Positions 7,492 through 63,900 of a stretch of DNA of 64,000 nt are shown here, piece after piece; positions within the stretch are counted from its first letter, which is position 1, and every line of letters starts with the position of its first letter. The notes under the pieces were generated by a model. That model was not told the origin of the DNA, did no database searches, and saw nothing but the letters and a program-made list of their open reading frames with translations. The position numbers were made by a program, and so were the translations under genes. Origin of the DNA: Zeus faber (Eukaryota > Chordata > Actinopteri > Zeiformes > Zeidae); assembly GCA_960531495.1 (NCBI GenBank), contig OY482850.1, forward strand, positions 7,338,587 through 7,402,586, written 5' to 3'.

Positions 7492-8307
7492 ATTTCATGA
7501 CTTTGTAGAAGTTGCATTAGAGAGAACAAGTTATGATCTCAGGTTAGACTGAATTTTTTTTGTTTCCATTTCCCATGGAAATGGGGAGCTGCTTTATCTG
7601 ATTTTCACATTTCCTATCTGTTTATTTATGTTCAGATGTGGTAATATGAGTGTACTTAAAGTAACTGTTTACGTTTGTTTAAAATGAACTTACAATAACT
7701 TGACTGTCTTTCAGCTGCAGCTCACATTTATTATTCCTTTATCTTCAGTATTAACTTGTCAGAAGTTTACTCTTGGAATTCTCAGCTGTTATTTTGTCTA
7801 TTTTGACTGCTGCCCTTGAACCCTCAAAGTAATTACATCTTTTTGTTATCTTTTTTGTACACTAAATGTGGTTGAAAGTACTCTCTGCAATGTTTACATT
7901 ATGCATATACATTTTTTGCAACTTTTTATACTTTTCAATGAATATTTTTCTACTTTTTTCTACTGTTTTTCTTTTAAAATAAACATTTCACAATGAAAAA
8001 TTATGATTGCGTTCTTCTGTCTGTCGATGTCGGCTATCTAAAGTGCTGTTTGCCCCTAGTGCCAGTAGATCATGTTTTCTACCATAATATGTTTAAAAAA
8101 TATGTTTTGTGCATGGCAAGAGAAACCAGTAGGAAAAAATGGGATTTTGATCAGTTTCCTATTCAGGTTTTCTTGTTTGCGTGTCTCAGTAATGTCAGAA
8201 GTCTTACAGCATTGCTTCTGGGCCAGGGATATAGGCTGCATTATATTGTTAGGGGAAGGAGTCAAATGTGAAAATACTGGTGTCAAGGAAAGGGCAGGAA
8301 AACCCTA
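7492..8307 (+). other. Probable RESF1 3' UTR with AATAAA signal at 7978-7983
   Basis: The sequence after the RESF1 stop is T-rich and non-coding. A canonical AATAAA lies at 7978-7983, about 490 bp downstream of the stop, and could end the transcript. No other gene is visible. The stretch from about 8000 to 8300 is unassigned. Confidence 0.5.
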
Positions 8308-8516
8308 TGGGGATGGTAGCTCAGGAGGTAGAGCTGGTGGTCTAGTAATCCAAAGATTGCTGGTTTGATCCCAGGCTCCTTCTGCTAGCATGCTGTAGTG
8401 TCCTTGAGCAAGACACTTAACCCCTAATTGCTCCTGATGGCTGCGTCCGTCGGTCTTTGAACAATTGTAAGTCGCTTTGGATAAAAGCGTCTGCTAAATG
8501 TAAATGTAAATGTAAA
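8308..8516 (+). mobile_element. tRNA-derived SINE, full copy
   Basis: The head has a tRNA-like A box (TAGCTCAGGAGGTAGAGC) and B box (GGTTTGATCCCAGG), both RNA polymerase III promoter elements. The body contains TCGCTTTGGATAAAAGCGTC and the 3' end is a run of ATGTAA repeats. The same element recurs at 38674-38886 (+), 25587-25805 (-) and as a fragment at 62041-62128 (-). Confidence 0.85.
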
Positions 8517-16142: not shown

Positions 16143-16379
16143 ATGAATGATTCAAAAACCTCCACCACATATTTTATTGAAATTAATGTCTAGTGGAGTC
16201 AACATTTAACCATGGGTGGACTACATTATGATGAGTAGGATGATCACACAGACGTGACCAATCCTTTTCTCTTTGTGAAGACAGAGGTTAAGAGCACATA
16301 CTCCGTTGGGATCGTGGTCTCAGTTAACGTCCGATGATTCTCCGTTGGGATCGTGATCTCAGTTCACGTCCGGTGATTC

Positions 16380-17050
16380 TCCGTCGTTGTTGTATCTGGT
16401 CTGGAAGGTTGCAGAATTTTTTACCCAAGTTGGTCATTGTACCATCTTAACTGCTGCTGCGGTGGTGAGGAGGATCTAGAATGGTCCCAGGAATCTGGTG
16501 GAGTTCAAGATTTTCCTCCGGAAGTCGCGGATCATCACCAGTCACCTGGCCGTGTAGAGGTCATCCAAATGGGACGGGTAGGGCTTCTTTGACCTGGGCA
16601 CATGGACTTAAACACTTGGGTGAGAGACACACATTATGACAACATTGTTTGGTGTAGGTCAACGAATGCAAAATGGGGTACGTGGAATAATTCTATGATT
16701 TCCCAAACAGTTATGTTGATAGCTGACTACAGACTCAGTACAAAAATAAATGTATGCACGCACCGTAGTGTTACAACAGTAATATTATTACTACGTCTAA
16801 TATGTAGGAGATAATGTCCATAGAATCCCATCTACACAATCCATTAATAAATTAAAATCTAAAAATGATAAATAATAATAATCTGAAAAACTGGAAAATC
16901 TGATCACTACTGGTTTACGTGATGTAATTCATATGTGGCTTTTGTCGACAGAAGACAGACCTAACTGCGTTGGTCTCCCGGTCAGCACTTCATGGTGGGA
17001 CAGTCCTGTTACATCATGTGATCGTCCTCGCATTCCAGTCATCACTAATG
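16380..17050 (-). pseudogene. ERV integrase C-terminal fragment
   Basis: Minus-strand translation near 17030-16940 gives TGLSHHEVLTGRPTQLGL, the usual retroviral segment after the integrase core. Near 16540-16380 there is a DFRRK..NSTRFLGP..ILLTTAAAVK pattern, the SH3-like integrase C-terminal region. Stops and frameshifts separate the two. It is the upstream neighbour of the env fragments, as in a normal provirus. Confidence 0.6.
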
Positions 17051-17891: not shown

Positions 17892-18356
17892 TGAGGTGTC
17901 TGGAAGGGTTGAGGTGAATAGGTTACTGAGCTCCCAAAGCTGAGATATAGTGCGGTCATAATATTAACTATGTTAGTATTAGATTTATTGCCTCGATGTC
18001 ATACGAAGAACGAAAACAACAATGGGTCTATTGAGAGGTCCTATGGGAGAGGAATTTTGTTGATTCTTCCAGCTCGACCAGAGGAGGAAAGGTTTACATT
18101 TAGGACAGGATATAGGCTGAGCGGGCACCTATGGGTTGGAACCAGATGTGGTATGTTATCTTTGTACAGCTTTAAAAGCGAGTGCAGAGCGTCACTTGGG
18201 AGAGATTCCATCTGGCTCGGGTCTCTCCCAGGACATCCATGGCAAGTCTGGTTTGATGCTGATTTGTGTAATAAAATCATTATTTTATTCGAGTCAGTGT
18301 CAGCGGTCACTCCTTCATTCTTCAACACATCACACCCATCAAGAAACTAAACTACA
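17892..18356 (+). repeat. 5' LTR of young provirus
   Basis: It starts TGAGGTGTCTGG and ends AAACTACA, with AATAAAATC near 18268 as a likely polyadenylation signal. It matches the 3' LTR at every position except 18334 and 18343. Short reading frames in it (for example 18041-18328 on the minus strand) recur in the other LTR only because the sequences are the same. Confidence 0.95.
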
Positions 18357-18359
18357 AAG

Positions 18360-18379
18360 TGGCGTCACGAATCAGGATC
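18360..18379 (+). promoter_or_regulatory. Primer binding site (TGGCGTCACGAATCAGGATC)
   Basis: It lies three bases after the 5' LTR, where reverse transcription is primed by a host tRNA 3' end. Copy 3 has nearly the same site at 60442 and copy 2 a mutated one near 34890. I could not assign the tRNA with confidence. Confidence 0.8.
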
Positions 18380-21300
18380 TGTTGGGCCTCATCTGCCGAT
18401 GCTGCCTGCTCCAGCGAACTGCCGCTCTCAGGGTGAGTGACCTCTCACAAAATTGAGCTGTTATGTGGGCTAGGAGCAGTATGTTTTTGGCAGGGAGACT
18501 ACACTGAGATTATGCGGGGATGGAGATGATGTGTTGATGTGTGAAGTGAGTTTCCATCTAAATTGGGGTTAATTAAGATGTAAAAGACGTAAATAAGGGG
18601 AATAAGAGAATAATAAGTGAAGAAAAAGAGAATTAAGTTGAAATAGAGAATAGAGACGAGAGAAATAAAAGTTAAAGGTTAAAAGTTGAAATAGAGAATA
18701 GAGACGAGAGAAATAAAAGTTAAGAGTTGAAATAGAGAATAGAGAGGAGAGAAATAAAAGCTAAAAGTTAAAACTTGAAATAGAGAATAGGGACGAGAGA
18801 AATGAAAAATGAAGTTAAAAGTGAAAGTTAAAGGCTTAAAAGATGTTGAGAAAGTAGAAATAAAAAGTAATTGTAGAATGGCAGAACTAGTAGCCAAAAG
18901 TTATTTAAATAACCATGCAAGATAAACGAAGACAGGGCCCGTATCTCGTTAAACAGCAAGACATGTGTACATTAAATGCTGTGTGAAAGTTGGCCGAATG
19001 AAGATATAATATAGTCAAATCTAGGTAGGAAAAAACAAGAGGAAATAACCCTGGCCAGGGGAATTGACTCAAAATAAAATTATATGAATAAAGATGAAAA
19101 AGAAGAAAGTAAAGTGAAAAAAGAGATAAAAGTTAAAAGCCTAAAAGTAAGATGAAAAATATGAAAAGTGAAAAAGAGATAAAAGTTAAAAGCCTAAAGT
19201 AAGATGAAAAAGATAAAGTCAAATAAAAAGAGTTACAAGTTAAAGGCTAAAGATGAAAAATAAAGTTTGAGCTAAAGTAAGATGAAAAGGATAAAGTGAA
19301 ATAAAAACAGTTACAAGTTAAAGGCTCAAAAGATGAAAAAATAAAGTTTGTAAAGAAAAGTGAGGAAAAACAGGGCAGAACCTGCTCTGGAGAACTAGTG
19401 AACATGCATGATGAGAGAATCTGATTAAAAAGAATTTGTTAAAAGTGTGGCCAAAGTAAAATTTTAAAAGTCTGGCCAAAGTGAAAATTTTGATGAAATT
19501 AGAAAAGTATAAATGAGTCGACCTAAAACATAAAGCTAAGCGCTGTTAAAGTCTCTGGGGATTAGATGTTCTGCTGGTCAGACATACCTTTTTCTTTTTT
19601 TCTTTTTGTGTGTGTGAGTGTGAAGGTGCCACATGTGAAGAGCTTTGTGTAATGTTTTGTGTATGTGTATGTGATATAGAATATATGTGTTATTAAATAG
19701 GTATACATATGTGGTGAGCAGTTGAATAATACATAAAGAAAAACATTTCTTGCCCCTTTAGTGATAAACATATATGAGCCTGTATACGGACTTTGTAAAG
19801 TTGATAAACATATATGAGCCTTTCTTTAAGGACTTTTGATAAATATATATGAGCCTTTCTTTAAGGACTTTTGATAAATATATATGAGCCTTTTTCTCTA
19901 AGGACGTTTGATAAATATATATGAGCTTTTTTTTCCAAGGACGTTTGTGCATTTGATAAAGGATATGAACCTTTACAGGACTTTATATATTTGATAACAA
20001 ATTGAGCCTTCTGAAGGACTAGAGCCACAGTCTGCCTACACATACATGAACACATCCAGAAAAGAAAAGAAAATCTCCTGCTCTGAATTGGAAGGAGGAT
20101 TTGTGATTTGTTTGATTGGCGTGTGGGTTTTTTCTTTTTCTTTTTGTGCTTGGGGTGTGTGTGGCGGTGATTTCTGTGAATCCTGTCTGGTTAAAAGAGC
20201 AGATGGTCTTGTTGGGGTGAAGGGAGACTCTGGTTCTTGATGCAAGAAAAGAGGTTTTGTGTTTCGACTGCTGAGAGAAAACAGCTTTGATTTACGAGTG
20301 CGTGTAACTGCATTGAGCTGGGCTGTCCCTACGGGAGCCAAAACAGGATGTTCACTCGCTGACGACCAGTCCATACTGGAAGTCTTTGCTAAACATAAGA
20401 GGTGGAGCAAGGGGTGGTGCTTCACACAAGAGTGGAATTTAGTAAACTCCTCCTGACAAGAGGGGCTGGTGAGCCCCCTCTCTACTCTTTTCTCTCAGTA
20501 GTTAGAAGAAAGAATAAAAAGGATAAAATACAATTAAATAGATAAATAGAATAAAAATAATAAAATAAAATAAAAATAAATAGATAAATAGAATAAAAAT
20601 AACTAATTAAAGGTGATATCAGATTGACTAATATACTCTTTGGACTTTAAATGCATTGCATGATTAAAAGTAACCATTGCTTTATTTCAAGTGTGCGCAA
20701 AATAAAAAGCTGATAATGTATGTCACACTGAATTGTATCACAGTGTGTATAAGAATTTAGAGTGAGCCTAAGGCATTGAACTCTTCTGTTGTTCTTTTTC
20801 TTTTTTCTTTCTTCCTCTCTTTTACTATGCTGAGTGAAAGCTGGGGAAAGACAGAAAAGATGGAATGAGTCTGAACTGAATCATCCATAGGGCAGATGAC
20901 AAGACATCTGGCAGATCTTCACAGACACTGAGGCTTGCGGATGACAACGTTCTGGAATCCTGAATCCATCCAAATCAATTAAAGGCCAGTACGGTTTTAT
21001 CCACAAACTCTTTCAACAGACCTCACCTGCATTTACCTATATGCCTATAAATTTAGTTACAATAAATGTGTTTAGCTTGTTTTCACATATGGGTTTGTAG
21101 TAGTTCTTTTTCATACATTGCATTTGTAATTATTTAGTGAGAGACTTGGCAACAGACTGACCAATTAAGGCATTTGCCTAATTAATGGAGTATTATTGAT
21201 TAATTGATTGATCACATATGGAAAAGCTGATTTGATTTAAATACTGTTCGGTGAATATTGGTTTCATTATCTGGGTATGATTTATCTATGCTGTTTTGAG

Positions 21301-21526
21301 AATGAACACTGATGTAATTTTGATAATTGAACATAAATGAGGGTGATCAGATGCATCAGATGGTGAACAAGTGAATTGGCTTTCACAAGTGGGAAGCGAT
21401 TGGTCTCCTTTGGGGTTGGCAAATTCAGCTGTTGTTGGTTGAGTGTGATTACACGGTGCTTTATAAAGACATTTTTAAAATAATTCAATTTGATTTACAA
21501 TAAAAGAAAATAAGAGAGTCATTAGG
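18380..21526 (+). other. Long purine-rich retroviral leader with tandem repeats
   Basis: About 3.1 kb separate the primer site from the gag start, far longer than usual for simple retroviruses. On the coding strand it is dominated by A and G. Near-tandem units GAAATAGAGAATAGAGACGA repeat at 18635-18810, and AAGATGAAAA[A/G]GATAAAGT units repeat at 19080-19350. A stem-loop array follows at 19764-20025, and an (AATA)-rich tract at 20515-20610. No conserved reading frame is visible. Copies 2 and 3 keep recognisable versions, so the leader is a family trait. Confidence 0.8.
19764..20025 (+). repeat. Tandem array of ~39-bp stem-loop units in the leader
   Basis: About seven units follow the pattern GATAA, then ATATGAGCCTT, then a short loop, then AAGGAC and TTT. 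The CCTT and AAGG arms can pair. Variants such as CCTTCTGAAGG and CCTTTACAGG keep complementary arms while the loop changes. One unit (CCTGTATACGG) pairs only its outer CC/GG. Equivalent arrays lie at 33535-33735 (minus strand, copy 2) and 61628-61830 (copy 3). Confidence 0.8.
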
Positions 21527-22588
21527 ATGTCAAAAATGGATACTAAAATTACAAAAGTAATCACTCCTATTGATGTAGTGCAAAAGAACAATCCCCTTAT
21601 TAAAGATATTGCAAAAATATCAGGAAAATGGAGCAAGCGTTGGCCGGACATTGAACAACCATGGCCAGTTGAAGGAACTCTTAACCCGGATGTGATTAAA
21701 ACAATACAGGTGCTTGTGTCCACATATAAGGTAAATCAAAAGAAAGGCAAGAAAGGAAAGAGACGCACGGAGAAAAGACAAACAGAACTTGGCGTTCTGC
21801 AACTGTTTGCAAAGGAGGGACAGACATGGTTCGAAGCTGCAAAGGAAAAAAGAGAACAAAGTAGACAAGAAATAAAGAAAAATGAAAAGGAAACAGAAAA
21901 ATTGATGGAGAAGATTACCACGCCCTTCTCACATACAGCATCTTTACAGAAGCCCCCGCCTTATGAGAAGGAGGTGAAGTTCACTGATGTTTATCCCCAG
22001 CTCCCAGTGATTGCACAGGAGGGCAACTATCTCTTCAAAGGTGAGGATGAGCAAATAATAGAGATGGGCAAGGCTAAAACAACCATGAAGATGTACCCGA
22101 GCTCCAACAGTACAACGAAGAAGGAACAGGATCAGGAGACTCTCAGAAAAGTCAACCAAATACAGTTGGTGGATAATAAGAAGAAGAAAAAGAAACAAGC
22201 TGTGGTTATGCAGAGCCAGTCACAACTAAATCAATTACCACCACAACCACAGCAAGGACAGATTCAGGTACTACCACCTGTGGTCTTCACTGTCTCCTTT
22301 CCACAGCCAGTTTTTGACCAACCACAAACATGGAGAGGAAGAGGCCAAGGAAATTTAGGAAATGGAAGAGGAGGAAATTTCCAACAGTCTCAAGGAGCGT
22401 GTCATAATTGTGGACAACAAGGTCATTTTGTACGTGACTGCTACAGGTTCAGAGGAGGCTTCAGAGGAGGCTTCAGAGGAGGCTTCAGAGGAGGCTTCAG
22501 AGGAGGCTTCAGAGGAGGCTTCAGAGGACAACCACAGCCACCCAGGGGACCAGCGAACCCTTACAGGGGTCCGGAACCTGGTTTCTAG
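21527..22588 (+). CDS. gag: ERV gag, 353 residues, capsid-less
   Basis: This is the retroviral structural polyprotein, but short. Residues 1-130 are a basic, charged matrix-like region. PPPY at 143-146 is a late-domain motif of the kind that recruits ESCRT through NEDD4-type ligases in retroviruses. Residues 150-270 are linker with a poly-lysine run. C292, C295, H300 and C305 form one CCHC zinc knuckle of nucleocapsid. Residues 309-336 are an RGG/F array from a 12-bp tandem repeat. No capsid major homology region is visible, whereas a full Gag normally exceeds 450 residues, so capsid seems deleted. The frame ends with UAG (22586-22588), after which the same frame continues into protease. ATG 21527 is preferred because it opens the conserved block, and a second ATG follows three codons later. 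Confidence 0.85.
22448..22531 (+). repeat. 12-bp tandem repeat encoding RGGF
   Basis: TTCAGAGGAGGC is repeated perfectly six times, with a seventh altered copy, just after the zinc knuckle. It encodes Phe-Arg-Gly-Gly units, a classic RNA-binding composition. Copy 3 (about 62273-62313) has only about three units, so the array length varies between copies. Confidence 0.93.
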
Positions 22589-22660
22589 GGGTGCCCAGAA
22601 GACTCGAAAGGGAGGTGTCAGCTGGTAGTATCAGGGCCGGAGCAAGATCCAAAAATAGAG
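22586..22660 (+). promoter_or_regulatory. Candidate UAG readthrough site between gag and pro
   Basis: gag and protease are in the same frame, separated by one UAG followed by GGG UGC and with no other stop before the protease. Gammaretroviruses make Gag-Pol by suppressing a UAG in just this position, helped by a downstream pseudoknot. The G-rich segment GGGAGGTGTCAGCTGG follows here. Copy 3 keeps the UAG and the same downstream sequence (about 62855). Confidence 0.7.
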
Positions 22661-23629
22661 GTGAAAATAAATAATAAGTCATTGGAAGTAATGGCAGATT
22701 GCGGAGCAGCTTTCACCTGTGTTCGGCCTGAAGATGCTATACATCTCCCCATGTCTGACCAATTGGTACGGACAATCGGGTTTGAGGGTGTGAAACAGCT
22801 GATTCCTCTCACAAAACCAATTGAGCTCTGCTGTAGAAATCTGAAAATCACACTACCTATTTTGGTATCAGAACATACGCCCATTGCACTCTTGGGAAGA
22901 GATGCTATGTGCAAACTAAATTGCACAATACGGTGTACACCGGACGGCTGTCTGGTGGATGTGCCACCTGATGTCTACCACCAATTATTTAGCGCACCAG
23001 AGACCGAGACTTCTTCAGTATATTGGATTGGAAATCTTAGTCCAGAGCTATTAGAGCCAGCCAAGCTGTGGGAGAAGTTCATTGTGGCAAATATGCCTGA
23101 TGTTAAGCCCCCTGAGTATCCACATCACTGCACGTTGAAATATTTCAAGAAAACTGACCAATTGGATCCAGAAGAATGGTTGAGTAGTCAACCGAAGCAT
23201 GTTCAGCTGACCTCATGCTGCATAATTGTGGGACCACAAGGAGCAGCTATGAAGATAAACATCAATGAATATCTTGAGAAAGAGTTTGACATTGTGAAAA
23301 GTGTGCCACATGTGACTTTAATGGTGGCTGAAGGATTTGAGCAGAAGCAAATAGGAGAAATGATGGCAGAAGCTGAGGAAGCCGTTTTTTCACCAATAAA
23401 GGAGAATCTTGCTATCTCGATAAGTGAAGAACAGAAGTTCATGAAAATCATGATTTCAGCTCAAGGACAAGGACAACCACAAGTGATACAGATGACACAT
23501 GAGTCAATGTTCACCGCTAAATTGGACTCAGACAGCATGAGAGAGGAGATGCTGCAACAAATTCCAGAATGTTTGTGGTCACGACATAGTACGGACATCG
23601 GACTTGTGAAGTCAGCCCAGTTGAACTGA
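22589..23629 (+). CDS. pro: ERV protease plus 2H-phosphoesterase-like domain
   Basis: The frame is read through from gag. A retropepsin domain comes first, with MADCGAAFTCV at the active site (DCG where DTG or DSG is usual) and ALLGRD near its end (22890-22910). After VYWIGNL (about 23018) a second domain follows. It has PHHCTLKYF (His codon 23126-23128), a beta-rich segment with TSCCIIVGPQG, VPHVTLMVA (His codon 23309-23311), and a C-terminal KFMKIMISAQGQ strand. Two H-x-T-L motifs 61 residues apart in this order match the 2H phosphoesterase pattern. The spacing of surrounding blocks most resembles the CNPase/RICH group. In that family the histidines hydrolyse cyclic or 2'-5' phosphodiesters, but activity here is unproven. 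A 10-bp deletion relative to copy 3 shifts the frame before RT and causes the stop. Confidence 0.75.
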   Translation, partial: GCPEDSKGRCQLVVSGPEQDPKIEVKINNKSLEVMADCGAAFTCVRPEDAIHLPMSDQLVRTIGFEGVKQLIPLTKPIELCCRNLKITLPILVSEHTPIALLGRDAMCKLNCTIRCTPDGCLVDVPPDVYHQLFSAPETETSSVYWIGNLSPELLEPAKLWEKFIVANMPDVKPPEYPHHCTLKYFKKTDQLDPEEWLSSQPKHVQLTSCCIIVGPQGAAMKININEYLEKEFDIVKSVPHVTLMVAEGFEQKQIGEMMAEAEEAVFSPIKENLAISISEEQKFMKIMISAQGQGQPQVIQMTHESMFTAKLDSDSMREEMLQQIPECLWSRHSTDIGLVKSAQLN

Positions 23630-25586
23630 GACCAGGAACCAAACCTCCTTGGAAGAACCAATATCCACTAAAGGAGGAGGCAATCAAAGGGATTGAACCA
23701 CAAATTGAAGGACTGTTAAAAGCAGGTGTAGTGGAAATATGTTTGGATCCTCAGAGCAATACACCTATATTGCCTTTAAAGAAACCAGATGAGTCCTATC
23801 GCTTGGTACATGATTTAAGAGCGATAAATGAAGTGGTGCAGGATTTGCCAGCAGATGTACCAGATCCACATACCTTGTTAGCCCAAATCCCTCCAGAGGC
23901 TACACACTTCACAGTGTTGGATTTGTGTGGAGCATTTTTCAGTGTTCCACTGAGCGAAGAAAGTCAAGGATTGTTTGGATTCACATACAAAGGACAAACC
24001 TTCAAGTACAAGAGGCTCCCTCAAGGATTCAAACATAGCCCTCACATTTTCAATAAAGTATTGCAAGATGACTTGGCTGGGATTGATCAGATCTTGAAAA
24101 GTACTGTCATTCAGTATGTGGACGACATCGTCATCTGTTCACCGGATAAGGAAACATGTCATGAGGATTCAATCAAACTGTTACAGCAATTGGCAGACAA
24201 AGGTCACAAGGCCTCTCAGAAGAAGCTACAGTATTGTCAAGAAAAAGTTGTTTATTTGGGTCGAACAATAACCCATGGACACAGAAGCATCTCTGAGAGT
24301 CATTTGGAAGCCATTCGAACGGCACCAAAGCCTAGAACAGTCAGAGAGATGATGACATTTCTTGGCATTGCGGGATATTCTTCAGCCTGGGTAGAAGATT
24401 ATGCCTGCCTAACAGGGCCTTTGAGAGCCATGATAAAAGAAACTGGGAATGCTCAACTCCATTGTAACCTCACCTGGACCCAGGAAGGTCTTATGGCATT
24501 TGAAACGATCAAACAGAGGCTACAAGAAGCTCCAGCACTAGCGCTGCCAGACTACTCTAAGAACTTTTTGCTGTATGTGGCTACGTCCACTGGAGGCAAA
24601 TATGCATGTGCAGTTCTTTGTCAGCCAACAGGTACAGGGACAAGTCCTCAACCTGTGTCGTATTATTCTACTGCCTATTCAGAAGTAGAATCGGGGCTAC
24701 CACTGTGCTACAGAGCAATGGTGGGAGTTTATCTAATGTATGAGAAAGCATCATCAGTAACTATGGGTTACCCAGTGACAATTCTTACCCATCATAGTCT
24801 CAGAAATCTTTTGAACTTCGGTAAATGTACATTGACTATGTCTAGGCTAAGAGACTATCATAGGCTCTTAGAGCAGGAAGATGTCACCTTAGTAAGGTGC
24901 GTCACGGTAAATCCAGCTGATAATTTACCAACACCAGGGGATGGAGAGCCACATGATTGTATTCAGGAAGTAGAGAGATATGCAAAGCTCAGATCAGACT
25001 TGCAAGCTTTCCCACTTCATGTGTCAGATGTGGAGTATTGGACTGACGGGTCCTGCTATCGAATAGGAGACACATTGAGTGCTGGTTATGCAGTAGTCAA
25101 AGCCCAGGGAACTGAATTTGTTGTTGAGAAAGCAGAAGTAATACCACAACCTGCTTCTGCACAGCTTGCTGAGCTTGTGGGCCTGACTGAAGCTTGTCTA
25201 TTGGCCGAAGGCAAGCGAGTGACAATATATACAGATTCGGCATATGCACATAATGTGTGTCATTTATTTGGATCAGTATGGAAAAATCGAGGATTTAAGA
25301 AAACCGATGGTTCTCCGATACAGCATCATGCCCAAATAATGAAATTGTTGCATGCAATGATGAAACCAAAGGAAATAGCTGTAGCTAAGTGTGCAGCACA
25401 CAAAATAGACACGTCAAGGGTCACACAAGGTAACAAAGCGGCTGATGAGGCTGCTAAAGCAGTTACAGGAGCAAACAAAGCAGGCAAGGTTCTTCTGGTC
25501 ACTCATGAAGTGGACTTGGAAGATAAAATCACGCTCAGAGATGTGATCGCGATGCAAGAAGCGGCGTCAGCCATCGATAAACAATT
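23620..25586 (+). CDS. pol: ERV reverse transcriptase and RNase H
   Basis: The frame opens by 23620 (VELRPGTKPPW) and overlaps the protease frame by 10 bp. RT fingers carry RLVHDLRAINE, LDLCGAFFSVPL and RLPQGFKHSPHIFN. The catalytic box is YVDD (near 24116), and YLGRTIT and MMTFLGIAGY follow. A connection region leads to RNase H with the four acidic residues in WTDGS (near 25040), LAELVGL, YTDSAY and NKAADEAAK. All of these are intact, so this part could be enzymatically competent if expressed. A SINE inserted at 25587 separates it from integrase. Sequence style is gamma/epsilon-like (class I), judged from motifs only. Confidence 0.92.
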
Positions 25587-25805
25587 ATTACATTACATTA
25601 CATTTAGTCATTTAGCAGACGCTTTTATCCAAAGCGACTTACAATTATTCAAACACCGACGGACGCAGCCATCAGGAGCAATTAGGGGTTAAGTGTCTTG
25701 CTCAAGGACACTACAGCATGCTAGCAGGAGGAGCCTGGGATCGAACCAGCGACCTTTGGATTACTAGACGACCAGCTCTCCCTCCTGAGCTACCATCCCC
25801 TATGG
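25587..25805 (-). mobile_element. SINE inserted between RNase H and integrase
   Basis: This is the antisense tRNA-derived SINE, with the (TTACA)n tail at the left and the complement of the A box near 25790. It breaks the pol frame: the RNase H frame runs into it and stops at 25690-25692. It arrived either after this provirus inserted, or in its immediate progenitor. Confidence 0.9.
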
Positions 25806-26482
25806 TTGGCCCGAGGGGCCACACAAGATTCTACTGGTCTGTGGAGAAATCATGAAGGACTGATGGTAGCACCCCCTGACCTAGGTCTGATGATTCAGGA
25901 AGCACATGGGTTAGCCCATGTTGCAAGGGGGGAGGTAAGGAGAAAGATCACGAAAGAGTATGGTTTTTGGGCACCGTACTTGCTTGAGCAAATTGATTAT
26001 GTCATAGGCAGATGCACAATCTGTCTTAAAAATAACGTTCGGAGGGGTGTGTTGAGTCCACCCGGTCACATTCCAACTCCGACAGGTCCTATGCGTGAGT
26101 TGGTTGTGGATTTTGTTGACATGATAAGACCAATAGGAGGTAAAAGATACATGCTAGTCGTCGTGGATAGATTTTCACGGTGGCCTGAGGCATGTCCAAC
26201 CAAGCGTAAAGATGCTCAGTCAGTTGTCAAGCCAAGTTCTTGTGTCATGAGGTCATAAGCAGGTGGGGACTTCCAGATCGGATATCCTCAGATAATGGGA
26301 AAGAGTTCGTGGATAGAACAGTAAAATTAATTCTGCAAAAATTGGGAATTAAACAACGTTTAGGAGCTGTTTATCATCCACAAAGCCAAGGAGTTTGTGA
26401 AAAAATGAATGGTGTGCTGAAAAATGGCATTGTTAAAATCTGTCAGCATACAGGTCTGAATTGGGTAGAGGTGTGTAGTTAG
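25806..26482 (+). pseudogene. ERV integrase, frameshifted and 3'-truncated
   Basis: The N-terminal HHCC zinc domain (AHGLAHVAR then CTICLKN) is present at about 25900-26035. The catalytic triad is visible as VVDFVDM (D near 26109), SDNGKEF (D near 26293) and GVCEKMN (E near 26399). The frame shifts near 26229-26240, where an AAGCC-AAG duplication is seen. The same shift occurs in copy 2. The protein then stops at VCS (26482), missing the C-terminal DNA-binding region. Both copies share this short ending, so the deletion predates copy 1's insertion. Confidence 0.88.
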
Positions 26483-27479
26483 GAGCTAACACTACATTTA
26501 CTCAACACTATTGTTAACAAGGAAAATGCATGGACAAAGGAGGAAAAGGAAAATGTTAATCATATATTGGAATAATGTTAAAGTATAATGCAAAAGTGAA
26601 ATTATTATACTGTATTTGATGTTTGTGCAAGATACTGGCTGGTGATTCTTTCTTTCAGGACCAGTCAGAGGATGGCTGTGTCCAGAGATCCTAACAGCCT
26701 AATGGACTTGAACATTCAAACATGGACACTCGAAAATGGAGGAGGAAAATGGACGGCGGACCCTGAATGAAGACATCATGATCAGGAGTGTCGAGTGAAA
26801 TATCATTAAAAGTTGATGGTGTTAAAAAGCAACAGTTCAATACATACATATGTGTCCTGAATGTGTTTATAATATTGGAGTTTGTTTACTACAATGTAAC
26901 CTGTATTATTGATAAATATCCTGAACTCTACGCTAGATATTTTTAGCAAGACATATTACTTTGATTTGCTATTGTTTTCTTTGAGTTGTCTGTAGTAGGA
27001 TGAAGTGAATACATTGGGACCTCAGGTATTTTCTTTTTTTTGCGGTTTTTGAGGGACATTGGTGCTAGGCAGGGAAAGGTCCACTGGAAGGTCCGATGGG
27101 TCGACCAGCCTGACTTTGGACAAATTTTTTGATTTATTTCTGAGGCTCTTAATGTATGCATTTATATGTAACATCCTATACAGTAGTCTAAACCCTTCGT
27201 CTTTTTCTGTAAATTGATTTGGAGTACCTTAGGTGGTTGCCTGGGGCAGAGGGACCGTGAGAGAATTTTCCTGTCTTGATTGATTGATGGATGTTCTAAG
27301 AAATGAAGCTGCCAGATGGGTTTTTCGCTCTCACACTCCACAAATTTGCTGTATTGCTATGACTAAGCATGGTCAGAGGGGTATATTATAACCAATTGTG
27401 TTTGTTATTAAGTGATTTCTGTTAAGCCAATTAACATCGTATGTTCAATTACTCTTCTCTCTGTCTTTGTGTAGTCTCG
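26483..27479 (+). other. Non-coding 3' region of provirus where env would lie
   Basis: About 1 kb between the broken integrase and the polypurine tract holds only short frames full of stops. There is no signal peptide, cleavage site or membrane anchor of an envelope. It matches copy 2 (29512-30400, inverted), so the loss of env is a shared family feature. Confidence 0.75.
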
Positions 27480-27491: not shown

Positions 27492-27956
27492 TGAGGTGTC
27501 TGGAAGGGTTGAGGTGAATAGGTTACTGAGCTCCCAAAGCTGAGATATAGTGCGGTCATAATATTAACTATGTTAGTATTAGATTTATTGCCTCGATGTC
27601 ATACGAAGAACGAAAACAACAATGGGTCTATTGAGAGGTCCTATGGGAGAGGAATTTTGTTGATTCTTCCAGCTCGACCAGAGGAGGAAAGGTTTACATT
27701 TAGGACAGGATATAGGCTGAGCGGGCACCTATGGGTTGGAACCAGATGTGGTATGTTATCTTTGTACAGCTTTAAAAGCGAGTGCAGAGCGTCACTTGGG
27801 AGAGATTCCATCTGGCTCGGGTCTCTCCCAGGACATCCATGGCAAGTCTGGTTTGATGCTGATTTGTGTAATAAAATCATTATTTTATTCGAGTCAGTGT
27901 CAGCGGTCACTCCTTCATTCTTCAACACATCACTCCCATCAATAAACTAAACTACA
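27492..27956 (+). repeat. 3' LTR of young provirus
   Basis: It is 465 bp, colinear with the 5' LTR at an exact 9600-bp offset, and differs at two bases near its 3' end. It is followed by the AGAG target duplication (27957-27960). Confidence 0.95.
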
Positions 27957-30395: not shown

Positions 30396-31030
30396 CTAAC
30401 TACACACCATTAATGCCAATGGAAGCACCTCTACCCAATTCAGACCTGTATGCTGACAAATTTTAACAATTCGATTTTTCAGCACACTATTCATTTTTTC
30501 ACAAACACCTTGGCTTTGCGGATGATAAACAGCATCTAGACATTGTTTAATTCCCAATTTTTCCAGAATCAATTTTACTGTTTTATCCACAAACTCTTTC
30601 CCATTATCTGAAGATATGCGATCTGGAAGTCCCCACCTGCTTATGACCTCACGACACAAGAACTTGGCTTGGCAACTGACTGAGCATCTTTACGCTTGGT
30701 TGGACATGCTTCAGTCCACCGTGAAAATCTATCCATGACGACAAACATGTATCTTTTACCTCCTACTGGTCTTATCATGTCAACAAAATCCAGAACCAAC
30801 TCACGCATGGGACCTGTCGGAGTTGGAATGTGACCGGGTGGACTCTTCACACCCCTCCGAACATTGTTTTTAAGACAGATTGTACATCAGCCTATGACAT
30901 AATCCATTTGCTCAAGCATGTACGGTGCCCAAAAACCATACTCCTTCGTGATTTTTCTCCTTACTTACCCATGTGCTTCCTGAATCATCAGACCTAGTAG
31001 GTCGGGGGGTGCTACCATCAGTCCTTCATG
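30396..31030 (-). pseudogene. Copy 2 integrase, frameshifted
   Basis: Minus-strand frames 30850-30641 and 30659-30396 carry DFVDMIRP, SDNGKEFVDK and GVCEKMN. The break between them falls at the same AAGCC-AAG position as in copy 1. The ending keeps a few more residues (LPLALM) before the same VCS stop. The region to the right reads as the decayed HHCC domain, entered directly from the 2H fragment through a deletion. Confidence 0.82.
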
Positions 31031-31160
31031 ATTTCTCCTATGTGCTTCTGCTCAAATACTTCAGCCACCATTAAAGTCATATGTGGCACACTTTTCTCAA
31101 TGTCATGCTCTTTCTCAAGATACTTATCAGTGTTTATTTTCATAGCTGCTCTTTTACTTC
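31028..31160 (-). pseudogene. Copy 2 fragment of the 2H-like domain (second motif)
   Basis: The minus-strand translation keeps AAMKINTDKYLEKEHDIEK and a VPHMTLMVAE motif, equivalent to the second His motif of copy 1. The first motif is lost in the deletion. It is fused directly to integrase sequence at about 31035, where RT has been removed. Confidence 0.7.
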
Positions 31161-31189
31161 CTCATTCTACCACCAAGAATCCTCTTCTT

Positions 31190-31245: not shown

Positions 31246-31354
31246 TTCTGCACATCTATAAACCTTCTCTTTGGCCTTCTTCTCCTCATTCTTCTTATCC
31301 ACCACCTGTATTTGGTTGAGTTTTCTGAGAGTCTCCCGGTCCTGTTCCTTCTGG

Positions 31355-32081
31355 TCATGCTACTTTTTCCTCCGCTTTAGCCAACATCCGTCTGACTGTT
31401 GGGTCGTATCCTCCAATAGGTTTGTCCGAGTCACTCACACTCTCTTCTCCTATTTCCAGGCTTCTGACTTGTTGTCTGCTTCCCAAACGGTTCCTTGTCT
31501 TGGTACTGTTGGAGCTCGGATACATCTTTATGGTTGTTGTAGCTTTGCCCATCTCTATTATTTGCTCATCCTCATCTTTGAAGAGATAGTTGCCCTCCTG
31601 TGTCATCACTGGGAGCTGGGGAAAAACATCAGTGAACTTCACCTCCTTCTCATAAGGAGGGGGGCTTCTTTACAGATGCTGTATGTGAGAAGTGTGCGGT
31701 AATATTCTCCATTAATTTTTCTGCTTCCTTTTCATTTTTCTTTATTTCTTGTCTACTTTGTTCTCATTTTTCTTTTGCAGCTTCGAACCATGTCTGCCCC
31801 TCCTTTACGAACAGCTGCAGAATGCCAAGTTCTGTTTGTCTTTTCTCGGTGCGTCTCTTTCCTCTTTTTCCTTTCTTTTGATTTACTTTATATGTGGACA
31901 CAAGCACCTGCCTTGTTTTAATCACATCCCGGTTAAGAGTTCCTTCAGCTGGCCATGGTTGTTCAACATCAGGCCACCGCTTGCTCAATTTTCCTGATAT
32001 TTTTACAATATCTTTAATAAGGGGATAATTTTCTCTCACTACATCAATAGGAGTGATTACTTTTGTAATTATTGTATCCAT
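31355..32081 (-). pseudogene. Copy 2 gag N-terminal fragment
   Basis: The minus-strand frames from 32081 match copy 1 Gag through matrix and the proline-rich linker (KFTDVFPQLP). A segment of roughly 40 residues (with IGEESVSDSDKPIGGY) follows that copy 1 lacks, so copy 1 carries an extra internal deletion. Stops interrupt the frame near 31764 and 31355. Nucleocapsid is absent. Confidence 0.8.
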
Positions 32082-38673: not shown

Positions 38674-38886
38674 CGGGGATGGTAGCTCAGGCGGTAGAGC
38701 TGGTGGTCTAGTGATCTAAAGGTTGCTGGTTCGATCCCAGGCTCCTCCTGCTAGCATGCTGTAGTGTCCTTGAGCAAGACACTTAACCCCCAATTGCTCC
38801 TGATGGCTGCGTCCGTCGGTGTTTGAACAATTGTAAGTCGCTTTGGATAAAAGCGTCTGCTAAATGACTAAATGTAATGTAATGTA
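38674..38886 (+). mobile_element. tRNA-derived SINE, full copy
   Basis: A box TAGCTCAGGCGGTAGAGC and B box GGTTCGATCCCAGG are clear, and the tail is (ATGTA)n. It is inserted in the leader of the antisense family D provirus. Its B box is closer to the tRNA consensus than the copy at 8308. Confidence 0.9.
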
Positions 38887-39017
38887 GTTATTCTAGACCA
38901 AACATGCCTCCAGGTTTCTTCTAAACCTTGGATTTGGAGGCTGCACCCTGGAGTCCTCCAAACGAATGTTTTGGTTTATGCCGGCTCTGCCTTTGATGGT
39001 CCCCCTGGACACAGCTC

Positions 39018-43509: not shown

Positions 43510-44763
43510 ATGGCCAAAAGAACGTTTGATACAGCAGTGTGTGAGGAGATGGAAGTAATGATAAAAAATCACAAGGTGTTTATACAAAATCGGAAGAAAA
43601 CTGTAGAAAAAAAGGAAAGAGAAAGGATAGTACTAGCCATTTTCAAAAAGGAAGGAGAACAATGGAGGCAGAGAGAAAGTGTAACAAGGGAACACCCATA
43701 CACATAGATTGTTACAAAGAAATTAGGAAAGAGATACAGCAGTGGAGTAATGACAGTGATAAGGGGAAGAGAAGAGAAGATAATCACACCACACTATAAC
43801 ACATGCATACACACACACACACACACACATAATTTTGGATGGTGGCTGGTGAAATTTGGCCTCTGCATTTGACCCATCCTGGCTTGTCCTACCTCCAGGG
43901 GGGCAGCCAGGAGCAGTGGGCAGCATTCAACAATGCGCCCGGGAACCTGGTTCAGTGCAATGCACTGTGCCACCATACTACATGGGGACACACCAGGGAT
44001 GAGGAAAGCGATAATGACATTTTGAGAACAGGGAATTGCCCTGAAAAACTGATAAAAGTAAAGAGAGGGTTAGAAGAAGAGGGAAGATGTAATGAAAGAA
44101 AAAGGTTAGGAAGAACTAAGAGAAGAGAAAGAGAGGAATGTAGTCAAGAGAGAGAGAGAGACAGAGCAGAGAGAAAGGGAGGGGGCCGGCCCAGAGAAGA
44201 GGGAGGCATACTAGGCCAAAGCCCCCTAGCACAAGAGCTGATCGAAGCAGTTGAAACAAGGAGATCTAAAAGAGAGGGAGGGGCAACAAAGAGTTATGCA
44301 GAACTTTACCCTAGTAAGTAAGTAAGTAAGTTGTAAGTTGTAAGTAAGTTGTAAGTTCAGTACGTCCAATGGGGATCGCAGGACTTAGTAGGAGGGGTTA
44401 GTATCTAGACCCCCTAACATAAACTATGGAGGATCGAAGTCGATCAAGATATTTGAGGAACATACAGTGTGAAAGTTAATAGCTGTGGAGGACCTGGAAG
44501 CTTTGTTGGCCAGAGTGTTAGGGACATCCAAGATGGAGAGCATACTGGAAAATGGAGATTTGGGCTGGCTGCTGGACAAAGCCCTGGATGGGACTACATT
44601 TGACACATACAGGCCAACCACCTGGGGTGCACTCAGAAGCAAATTCCCAACCCGTATGCACAACAAGAGCCTGAAAGGCCACACGATCGGCGACACAGAC
44701 AATCCTGCGTCCTATCTACAGAAACAATTCAACAGGCCCCACCTCAGGCATTTTCTCCTCTAG
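43510..44763 (+). pseudogene. Gag fragments of the degraded ERV
   Basis: 43510-43707 encodes a 65-residue basic matrix-like start (MAKRTFDTAVCEEMEV) with ERIVLAIFKKEGEQW, like copy 1 matrix. A microsatellite and an unrelated dispersed repeat (43826-43965) interrupt it. Highly charged Arg/Glu sequence follows to 44321, then a frame to 44763 with ESILENGDLGWLLDKAL and NPASYLQKQFNR. The last part might be capsid, which copy 1 lacks. Multiple stops make it non-functional. Confidence 0.55.
43826..43965 (-). repeat. Teleost dispersed repeat, inverted relative to 56250-56475
   Basis: On the + strand it reads TTGACCCATCCTGGCTTGTC and GGAGCAGTGGGCAGCATTC, matching the reverse complement of 56270-56395. 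It lies beside an (AC)n run. It has no coding function. Confidence 0.7.
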
Positions 44764-44919: not shown

Positions 44920-45890
44920 ATGGAGTATTGGGAATGCAATCAGGAAGGTCAACCCAGAAGAGATTGTTCGATTACCAGATCTATTGTCATCACCCATGAG
45001 GCAGAACAAGAGATGTTTGTGGATGGATCTTGCTACAAAGATCATTTGGAAAACCATGTAGGGTTTACAGTAGTGAGACAGAACCCAGACAAAACGTTTG
45101 CTGTTATTCAAAATTCTCATTGTAAACAGCCACGCTCAGCACAGTTGGCTGAGTTGAGAGCTGAGCTGCCTGTCGAGAAGGAACAGGAAAAACAGTAAAT
45201 ATATACACAGATTCTGCATATTTACATGGTGTATGTCATTTGTTTGAAGTAGTATGGAACATTAGACAGTCTAAGAAAACAGATATAATATAATGCATAA
45301 TGCATTGTGATCAGATTGTGCAATTAATGTCGACATTGCTGCTGTCTAGACAAGTGGCAATGATCAAATGTCAGGCACACAGGAAAGGTAATGATTATGT
45401 TATAAAGGGTAACAATGCTGCAGATGAGGCTGCCAAAGTAGCCTCAAATAGTAGTAGGGCAGTCTAGGCAATATTGACCATGCCTGAGGCTGCGCCTATG
45501 GAAGAAGATGTTGTCCACATGCAGGAAAAAGCCGCAGTTTATGAGCAAAACATGTGGATAAGTTATGGAGAACCCATGATGGGATGTTGTTGGCGCCAAC
45601 AACATGGATAGGTTTGCTTATCACTAATGTGCATGGTTTTGACCATTGCGTAAGCGGGGGAGGTAGTGAGAAAAATCAGAAAAGGTTTTTGGTCACCATT
45701 CTTGCAAACAAAGGTTGATAATAAACTATGCATGTGAGGTATGTGCAAAAAACAACTTGAGAAAAACATCCACTACCCCATTAGGAAACATTCCTACACC
45801 TGAGGGACCATTCAGACACCTGGTCTTAGTTTAGATATATGCCACAACCTATAGAGGAAACAAAACATGCAAAGCTGTACTTAAATAACA
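44920..45890 (+). pseudogene. NC remnant joined to RNase H and integrase start
   Basis: YWECNQEGQPRRDC (about 44932) is a zinc knuckle with its His replaced. It runs in frame within about 20 residues into RNase H: MFVDGSCYKDH, SAQLAELRAEL, then after a frameshift IYTDSAYLHGVCHLFE and NNAADEAAK. Further right, VRKIRKGFWSPFLQ (45665) and nearby Cys residues are an integrase zinc-domain remnant. Protease and RT are therefore deleted precisely between NC and RNase H. Confidence 0.7.
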
Positions 45891-62858: not shown

Positions 62859-63900
62859 GTGCCCAGAAAACTCAAAAGGGAGGTGTCAGCTGGTAGTATC
62901 AGGGCCGGAGCAAGATCCTAAAATAGAGGTGAAAATAAATGATAAACCATTGAAATAAAAATGGCAGATGCTAAACATCTCCCCATGTCTGACCAATTGG
63001 TACAGACAATCAGGTTTGAGGGTGTGAGACAGCTGATTCCTCTCACAAAACCAACTGAGCTCTGCTATAAAAATTGGAAAATTACACTACCCATATTGGT
63101 GTCAGAACATACGCCCATTGCACTCTTGGGAAGAGATGCTATGTGCAAACTAAATTGTACAATACGGTGTACACCGGACGGCTAATCTGGTGGATGTGCC
63201 ACCTAATGTCGACCACCAATTATTTATGGCACCAGAGACCAAGACTTCTCAGTATATTGGATTGGAAATCTTAGTCCAGAGCTATTAGAGCCGGCCAAGA
63301 GGTGGGAGAAGTTCATTGTGGCAAATATGCCTGATGCTAAGCCTCCTGAATACCCACATCATTGCACACTTAAATATTTTAAGAAAGCTGGCCAATTGGT
63401 TCCGGGGGAGTGGTTGAGTAATCAACCCAAGCATGTTCAGCTGAACACGTGCTGCATAATTGTGGGACCACAAGGAGAAGCTATGAAGATAAACACTGAT
63501 GATTATCTTGATAAAGAGCATGACATTGAGAAAAGTGTGCCACATGTGACTTTAATGGTGGCTGAAGGATTTGAGCAGAAGCATATGGGAGAAATAATGG
63601 CAGAAGCTGAGGAAGCCCAATAAAGGAGAATCTTGCTATCTGGATGAGTGAAGAACAGAAGTTCATAAAAATCATAATCTCAGCTCAAGGACAAGGACAA
63701 CCACAAGTGGTACAGATATCACATGAGTTAATGCTCAGCACTAAATTGGACTCAGTCAGCATGAGAGAGGAGATGTAACAAATTCCAGAATGTTTGTGGT
63801 CACGACATAGTACTGACATCGGACTTGTGAAGACAGCTGAACTGGTGAGAGTTGAACTGCGACCAGGAACCAAACCTCCTTGGAAGAACTAGTACCCACT
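62859..63900 (+). pseudogene. Copy 3 protease remnant and 2H-like domain
   Basis: The protease active-site segment (equivalent to copy 1 22700-22735) is deleted, while the ALLGRDAMCKLN end remains. A frameshift at about 63182 follows. The 2H-like domain is then open at 63318-63623 with both PHHCTLKYF and VPHVTLMVA retained at the same 61-residue spacing. It stops shortly after. The sequence then leads in another frame toward RT (GTKPPWKN near 63860). Confidence 0.8.

What the first reader, a model, noticed from the sequence alone, without database searches (positions are those of the whole stretch)
23015..23500. Retrovirus with a CNPase/2H-phosphoesterase-like domain between protease and RT
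Seen: after the protease, the same frame has HCTL and HVTL motifs 61 residues apart, a YWIGNL block before them, a beta-type TSCCIIVGP stretch between, and a KFMKIMISA strand after. Known: 2H phosphoesterases use two HxT motifs. The vertebrate CNPase/RICH group has this order of blocks. In coronaviruses and rotaviruses a 2H enzyme cleaves 2-5A and blunts OAS/RNase L, and some retroviruses carry dUTPase in this pol position. Inference: an ancestor of this ERV captured a host 2H gene, perhaps for RNA repair or dampening of antiviral signalling.
Basis: partly seen in the sequence, partly recalled or inferred. Interest (0 to 1): 0.9.

Follow-up and report, generated by a model that had tools for sequence, protein, structure and literature searches.

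The report
Fish retrovirus carrying a 2H-phosphoesterase-like domain
An old retrovirus embedded in what is probably a fish genome carries, inside its polymerase gene, a piece that looks like a borrowed animal RNA-processing or signal-cutting enzyme; such borrowings were already reported in fish retroviruses, but what this one does is not known.

Summary
ORF 22589-23629 encodes a retroviral protease followed in frame by a domain (23015-23494) with HCTL and HVTL 61 residues apart. It lies in a 10.07-kb provirus whose LTRs differ at 2 of 465 positions, with a 4-bp target duplication. The domain is a protein family: 48 database proteins were listed, from teleosts and a stingray among the named ones. 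Of 33 aligned rows covering both motifs (window included), 31 keep both histidines and 29 the full H-x-T/S pair. Its divergence tracks that of the adjoining protease (Mantel r 0.91), so it is an old part of pol. Family profiles resemble CNPase with both motifs in register, more than bacterial LigT. AlphaFold failed (pLDDT about 32), so the fold is not shown, and the CNPase signal rests largely on the first motif. A review (PMC4977317) says epsilon-like fish ERVs sometimes encode a CNPase, citing Basta et al. 2009, not held. I file it as a new member of a known kind. Function is untested; my guess is a 2',3'-cyclic or 2'-5'-linked nucleotide, with cGAMP likelier than 2-5A in teleosts.

The parts
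17892..18356 (+). 5' LTR, TG...CA, 465 bp, preceded by target-site copy AGAG
18360..18377 (+). probable primer-binding site, tRNA not identified
   Evidence: sequence just inside the 5' LTR; assignment is inference
21494..22588 (+). gag-like ORF with one CCHC knuckle, ended by TAG; residues 39-148 of the related gag protein P0020 (capsid-like, label recalled) find no match in the provirus
   Evidence: zf-CCHC E 1e-4; TAG
22640..22930 (+). retroviral aspartic protease, in the gag frame after the TAG
   Evidence: RVP E 1.9e-7
23015..23494 (+). 2H/CNPase-like domain
23126..23137 (+). first motif H-C-T-L
23309..23320 (+). second motif H-V-T-L
23590..25692 (+). RT and RNase H ORF, in a different frame from the protease-2H ORF in this copy
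   Evidence: best PDB sequence match 4hkq, E 2.9e-115
25583..25807 (+). SINE-like insertion at the end of RNase H / start of integrase, 94-95% identical to two other places in the window
   Evidence: the copy at 38675 is read as tRNA-like by ARAGORN; the label SINE is inference
25848..26482 (+). integrase pieces in two frames (approximate start)
   Evidence: rve E 3e-6 and 1.6e-7, both just under Pfam's cut-off
27492..27956 (+). 3' LTR, followed by target-site copy AGAG
63249..63739 (+). 2H domain of a second, decayed provirus (copy C) running off the window end; 10 bp fewer than copy A near 63617
31021..31161 (-). remnant of the 2H domain in a third, inverted, decayed copy (copy B)

Best explanation
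A lineage of fish class-I-like retroviruses holds a 2H-superfamily, CNPase-like phosphoesterase domain as a fixed part of pol between protease and RT. It is most likely released from Gag-Pol by the viral protease (or stays on the RT N-terminus), is packaged in the core, and hydrolyses a small 2',3'-cyclic or 2'-5'-linked nucleotide through its two histidines. Shown: the domain, its place, its conserved histidines, its co-divergence with protease, and profile similarity to CNPase. Inferred: fold, catalysis, release, packaging. Guessed: the substrate; 2',3'-cGAMP made upon sensing of retroviral cDNA, or 2',3'-cyclic-phosphate RNA ends, seem likelier than 2-5A. The first two rivals below are sub-cases that differ in substrate.
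For: In-frame PR-2H with both motifs. Relatives with PR-2H-RT order, a stingray protein among them. Both histidines in 31 of 33 rows covering both; H-x-T/S twice in 29 of 33. PDB profile search: 23 of 25 listed sequences are CNPase or goldfish RICH, best of these E 0.026. hhalign of 44 of the 47 rows against 119 CNPases: score 45.3, P 1.7e-6, both motifs in register; 40.2 without insert columns, against at most 26.7 in 200 column shuffles; 38.4 against 9 fish and coelacanth CNPases alone. Single members weakly match LigT_PEase (6 of 17, best E 0.0029) and 2_5_RNA_ligase2 (5 of 17, best 0.0017). PR and 2H distances correlate, r 0.91, 0 of 2000 permutations as high. Copies A and C: dN/dS 0.47 over 165 codons, Fisher P 0.023. 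Viral LigT-like PDEs cleave cGAMP or 2-5A (PMC11410667, PMC8406329, passages).
Against: No confident structure (mean pLDDT 31.8 and 32.1). No relevant Pfam or PDB sequence hit for the window domain itself, and Pfam's CNPase model is not among the 11 families that matched any of the 17 members. The top row is a WRKY protein (E 0.02). Masking the first motif drops the hhalign score to 19.6 and masking both to 16.8, inside the shuffle range, so the likeness rests largely on the HCT region. Motif spacing is 61, against an average of 80 given for the superfamily (PMC8406329). P0034 has N and P0037 T at the first histidine; P0031 lost the first motif Thr and P0006 both. dN/dS against remnant B is 0.76 over 47 codons, not different from 1 (P 0.56).
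Confidence: 0.72

Rival explanations
1. 2H domain that degrades 2-5A and blunts OAS/RNase L, as coronavirus NS2 and rotavirus VP3 do.
For: Viral 2H enzymes of that kind are characterised (PMC8406329, passages; PMC10835031, passages).
Against: PMC2852836 (passage) says OAS genes are not found in some teleost genomes. Of the families compared, the domain aligns best to CNPase, whereas nidovirus and rotavirus 2-5A enzymes are linked to AKAP7 (PMC10835031); no AKAP7 profile was compared here.
Confidence: 0.07
2. 2H domain that works on RNA ends: it opens 2',3'-cyclic phosphates left on viral or primer RNA by host ribonucleases, helping repair or reverse transcription.
For: CNPase and LigT act on 2',3'-cyclic nucleotides (PMC5283653, passages); the position next to RT would place the activity at the site of reverse transcription (inference).
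Against: No ligase or kinase partner among the 13 provirus stretches scanned against Pfam (5, two of them overlapping; 8; one search lists 88 stop-to-stop ORFs in all); no assay.
Confidence: 0.25
3. A domain descended from a 2H enzyme that has lost catalysis and serves as a spacer or RNA-binding N-terminal extension of RT.
For: 4 of 33 rows lost motif residues; loops of LigT are proposed to bind RNA (PMC5283653, abstract and passages).
Against: The motif residues are among the most conserved columns (second His 41 of 41, first His 36 of 38), which a mere spacer does not explain.
Confidence: 0.15
4. Not a 2H enzyme: a retrovirus-specific domain in which two HxT tetrads arose by chance or convergence.
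For: No confident fold; CNPase signal falls within the shuffle range when motif 1 is masked.
Against: Both motifs, their order and the strand block between align to CNPase (one search aligns the first motif and that block only); 0 of 200 shuffled profiles reach the score; weak matches to four other 2H-type Pfam models.
Confidence: 0.12

Closest known systems
CNPase-bearing epsilon-like teleost ERVs (Basta et al. 2009, J Virol 83:10152; known here only from one sentence in PMC4977317)
   Same: Fish ERVs with a CNPase-like coding part.
   Different: The review calls it an additional ORF; here it is an in-frame domain between PR and RT. I could not read the 2009 paper, so it may describe exactly this arrangement.
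Vertebrate CNPase / goldfish RICH catalytic domain (PF05881)
   Same: Both HxT motifs in register, and the strand block between them, TPKT in CNPase against GPQG here.
   Different: Motif spacing 61 against about 79 in mouse CNPase (recalled, not counted in a call), no P-loop kinase domain found next to it, Pfam CNPase model not matched, 23% identity over 87 columns.
Bacterial LigT/ThpR
   Same: First strand and first motif align (hhalign score 23.4).
   Different: Weaker than to CNPase (45.3 and 40.2), and the score lies within the range of the CNPase shuffles; second motif not aligned. Only enterobacterial sequences were sampled.
Viral LigT-like PDEs of coronaviruses, rotaviruses and avian poxviruses
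   Same: Virus-carried two-histidine phosphoesterases (PMC10835031, PMC8406329, PMC11410667; passages).
   Different: The main texts of these three papers hold no word beginning 'retrovir' or 'CNPase'. Nidovirus and rotavirus PDEs are linked there to AKAP7.

Membership tests
2H phosphoesterase superfamily | two H-phi-S/T-phi motifs, about 80 residues apart on average (PMC8406329) | tested here: met
   HCTL and HVTL, 61 apart, shorter than the average; H-x-T/S twice in 29 of 33 rows covering both
2H phosphoesterase superfamily | bilobal 2H fold | tested here: inconclusive
   AlphaFold mean pLDDT 31.8 and 32.1; no fold search was made on such models
2H phosphoesterase superfamily | sequence-profile relation to a known member | tested here: met
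   hhalign to CNPase P 1.7e-6, above all 200 column shuffles; lost when motif 1 is masked
2H phosphoesterase superfamily | hydrolysis of 2',3'-cyclic or 2'-5' phosphodiesters | not testable with these tools
   needs assay
CNPase family PF05881 | match to the Pfam CNPase model | tested here: not met
   not among the 11 families listed for the 17 members at E up to 10, though the filters drop most matches above about 0.1; therefore called CNPase-like, not CNPase
CNPase family PF05881 | helix alpha7 lining the active site (PMC5283653) | tested here: inconclusive
   no usable model
Class I (gamma/epsilon-like) retrovirus | gammaretroviral-type RT | tested here: met
   best PDB sequence match 4hkq, RT/RNase H p80, 389 bits (that it is a gammaretroviral enzyme is recalled); Pr125Pol (foamy, recalled) 150 bits, HIV-2 RT 83, Ty3 81-86 (Ty3 named there for 7q5b only)
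Class I (gamma/epsilon-like) retrovirus | gag and pro in one frame parted by a stop, 4-bp target duplication (features recalled) | tested here: met
   TAG at 22586-22588; AGAG on both sides
Epsilon-like fish ERV | phylogenetic place of RT among epsilon-like viruses | not tested
   no reference tree built

The most novel reading that the evidence does not exclude
A whole lineage of fish retroviruses, reaching cartilaginous fish, has carried an active CNPase-derived 2H enzyme within Gag-Pol since early in its history; packaged beside RT, it destroys 2',3'-cGAMP (or another 2'-5'-linked signal) where viral cDNA is made and sensed. That would be a retroviral immune-evasion enzyme of a kind that none of the papers listed by my ten searches was seen to report.
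Probability: 0.12. Interest if true: 0.88.

Novelty: new member of a known kind. Interest (0 to 1): 0.5.

Why it matters
Few retroviruses are known to keep an extra enzyme in pol (recalled; dUTPase is the usual example). If this domain is an active 2H enzyme, it would add retroviruses to the virus groups that use this fold against host nucleotide signals or on RNA, and it gives a concrete substrate question (cGAMP, cyclic-phosphate RNA or 2-5A) in hosts of which some lack OAS genes (PMC2852836). Even as an inactive relic, its co-divergence with protease makes it a marker of a fish retrovirus lineage.

Tried and rejected
Structure: the window domain alone (result) and the alignment A2 (result) both gave mean pLDDT about 32; I made no fold search on them. 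Direct searches: Pfam and PDB sequences with the window domain alone found nothing relevant (Glycos_transf_1 at E 0.074 I take as chance). The window's own genome: the genome search did not complete in eight tries. Chance origin of the two motifs was set aside because relatives keep them. Programmed frameshift between 2H and RT was rejected because relatives such as P0004, P0006, P0012, P0022 and P0025 read on in one frame; these are database protein predictions. dN/dS: the script stopped at the integrase comparison after a gapped match was dropped, so integrase and gag values were not obtained; one search stopped before its second part, and its first value (0.33 over 123 codons of 2H) is a subset of the 0.47 over 165 codons.

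Full report
What is there. The ORF 22589-23629 on the + strand begins just after a TAG that ends a gag-like ORF in the same frame. Its first part is a retroviral aspartic protease (Pfam RVP E 1.9e-7). RT and RNase H follow at 23590-25692 (RVT_1 E 5.8e-29, RNase_H E 3.9e-21) in another frame; integrase pieces follow (rve E 3e-6 and 1.6e-7, both just under Pfam's cut-off).

The element. In this report copy A is this provirus, B the inverted copy and C the copy at the window's right end. The two LTRs of copy A, 17892-18356 and 27492-27956, have 465 bp, differ at 2 positions and are flanked by AGAG on both sides, so this insertion is young. The best PDB sequence match of the RT is 4hkq, RT/RNase H p80 (E 2.9e-115, 389 bits), gammaretroviral by recall; foamy-type Pr125Pol (recalled) scores 150 bits and HIV-2 RT 83. 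Copy A is defective: the frame breaks near 23620, a SINE-like element sits at 25583-25807, integrase is in two frames, and residues 39-148 of the related gag protein P0020 find no match in the provirus at E 1e-3. The three + strand ORF pieces after integrase that I scanned (26600-26767, 26782-26943, 27053-27214) match no Pfam family; the other pieces there were not scanned, so absence of env is not shown. Copy C runs on the + strand from about 60.1 kb to the window end, with a 2H domain at 63249-63739 that has 10 bp fewer than copy A's; copy B lies between about 29.5 and 35.2 kb with a 2H remnant at 31021-31161.

A conserved family. Named sources are teleosts (Micropterus, Scophthalmus, Dicentrarchus, Scortum, Mugil, Phyllopteryx, Austrofundulus, Prochilodus, Metynnis, Takifugu, Fundulus, Periophthalmus; teleost by recall) and the stingray Hypanus sabinus, a chondrichthyan. 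P0004, P0006 and P0012 and P0025 read protease, 2H and RT in one frame; P0022 too, though its RT lacks a part. The stingray protein P0031 has protease, the domain and, by eye, the start of RT. In the iterated alignment, 47 rows (the window and 46 of the 48 proteins; P0033 and P0036 dropped out) were aligned. Of these, 33 cover both motifs; 31 keep both histidines and 29 keep H-x-T/S twice. The exceptions are P0006 (both Thr lost), P0031 (first Thr lost), P0034 (Asn for the first His) and P0037 (Thr for the first His, stretch poorly aligned). ERV copies decay, so single losses are expected.

Age and constraint. For the 23 sequences with enough of both (of 31 with a protease and 47 with a 2H row), protease and 2H distances correlate strongly (Mantel r 0.91, 253 pairs, 0 of 2000 permutations as high). 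The simplest reading is one old acquisition and joint descent, not repeated capture; I built no tree. Between copies A and C, dN/dS is 0.47 for 2H (165 codons, Fisher P 0.023), 0.49 for protease (122 codons, P 0.051) and 0.34 for the start of RT (56 codons, P 0.037); between A and remnant B it is 0.76 for 47 codons of 2H (P 0.56). So in A against C, 2H is held about as firmly as its neighbours. These copies have also decayed since insertion.

Is it 2H? The alignment of 17 domains against PDB sequences listed 25, of which 23 are CNPase or goldfish RICH (best of these E 0.026); the first row is a WRKY protein at 0.02 and one is a dehydroquinate dehydratase at 1.1. The CNPase matches there cover the first motif and the following strand block, not the second motif. 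Scanned one by one, members weakly match LigT_PEase (6 of 17), 2_5_RNA_ligase2 (5 of 17), tRNA_lig_CPD (1) and 2H-SAK (1); the CNPase model is not among the 11 families listed. Profile against profile, 44 of the 47 rows (3 too short dropped) align to 119 CNPases with both motifs in register (score 45.3, P 1.7e-6, 87 columns, 23% identity). Without insert columns the score is 40.2; 200 column shuffles reach at most 26.7; the reversed profile gives 13.0; 9 fish and coelacanth CNPases alone give 38.4. The 11 distant members alone give 42.5 and the 33 near ones 35.1. Masking the second motif leaves 37.6, masking the first leaves 19.6, masking both 16.8. The likeness therefore rests mainly on the HCT region. 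Against enterobacterial LigT (55 sequences) the score is 23.4, with first strand and first motif aligned; CNPase against LigT, which share the 2H fold (PMC5283653), scores only 17.2 and out of register. LigT sampling was narrow, its scores had no shuffles of their own, and no AKAP7 profile was compared. AlphaFold failed twice. I put the 2H assignment at about 0.85 and CNPase as nearest known family at about 0.7, by judgement.

How it may work. If the fold is 2H, the two histidines would act on a 2',3'-cyclic or 2'-5' phosphodiester, as described for LigT and CNPase (PMC5283653, passages) and for viral 2',5'-PEs (PMC8406329, passages). Lying between protease and RT, the domain would be made as Gag-Pol and carried in the particle (inference from retroviral biology). 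Substrate: the 2-5A idea is less attractive because a held paper says OAS genes are not found in some teleost genomes (PMC2852836, passage). LigT-like enzymes of avian poxviruses cleave 2',3'-cGAMP (PMC11410667, passages), and retroviral cDNA is a known trigger of cGAS (recalled). RNA-end processing is the other serious option. None of this was tested.

What is known. [quoted passage not shown] 2009. That paper is not held, so I do not know whether its CNPase lies between protease and RT. In ten paper searches, of open-licence papers only and with lists cut short in some (20 of 1,488, 15 of 115), I saw no other report in the titles and abstract starts; of the papers that cite Basta et al. (8) I looked for CNPase in five and found it only in PMC4977317. 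Three papers on viral 2H enzymes, PMC10835031, PMC8406329 and PMC11410667, hold no word beginning 'retrovir' in their main texts. I therefore file this as a new member of a known kind. The parts I did not see described are the fixed place in pol, the retained histidines across distant members, the reach to a stingray and the co-divergence with protease; they may be partly in the 2009 paper.

Noticed in passing
22118-22119, and 31352-31498 (-): The gag-like ORF of copy A has no counterpart of residues 39-148 of P0020 or 206-469 of P0024 (capsid-like by recall). The inverted copy B seems to lack the same part, with about 145 bp more kept at the junction, which suggests a gag-deleted, possibly trans-mobilised subfamily.
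   Followed up: partly
25583-25807, 8301-8515, 38675-38892: Three copies, 94-95% alike, of a SINE-like element; the one at 38675 is read as a tRNA-Thr gene by ARAGORN.
   Followed up: partly
44398-44724, 45563-45652, 16317-16538: Weak matches (30-43% identity) to parts of fish ERV proteins P0020, P0019 and P0011, so further, more distant retroelements may lie in the window.
   Followed up: no
22697-22705: The protease active site reads D-C-G here and in P0021, while the other relatives that I read with this site intact have D-S-G or D-T-G.
   Followed up: no
   Followed up: no
18357-21493: A long stretch of 3.1 kb between 5' LTR and the gag-like ORF, with an array of 41-48-bp repeats at 18588-18855. 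Of three ORF pieces scanned, two match no Pfam family and one only CX9C at E 0.011, under the cut-off.
   Followed up: partly
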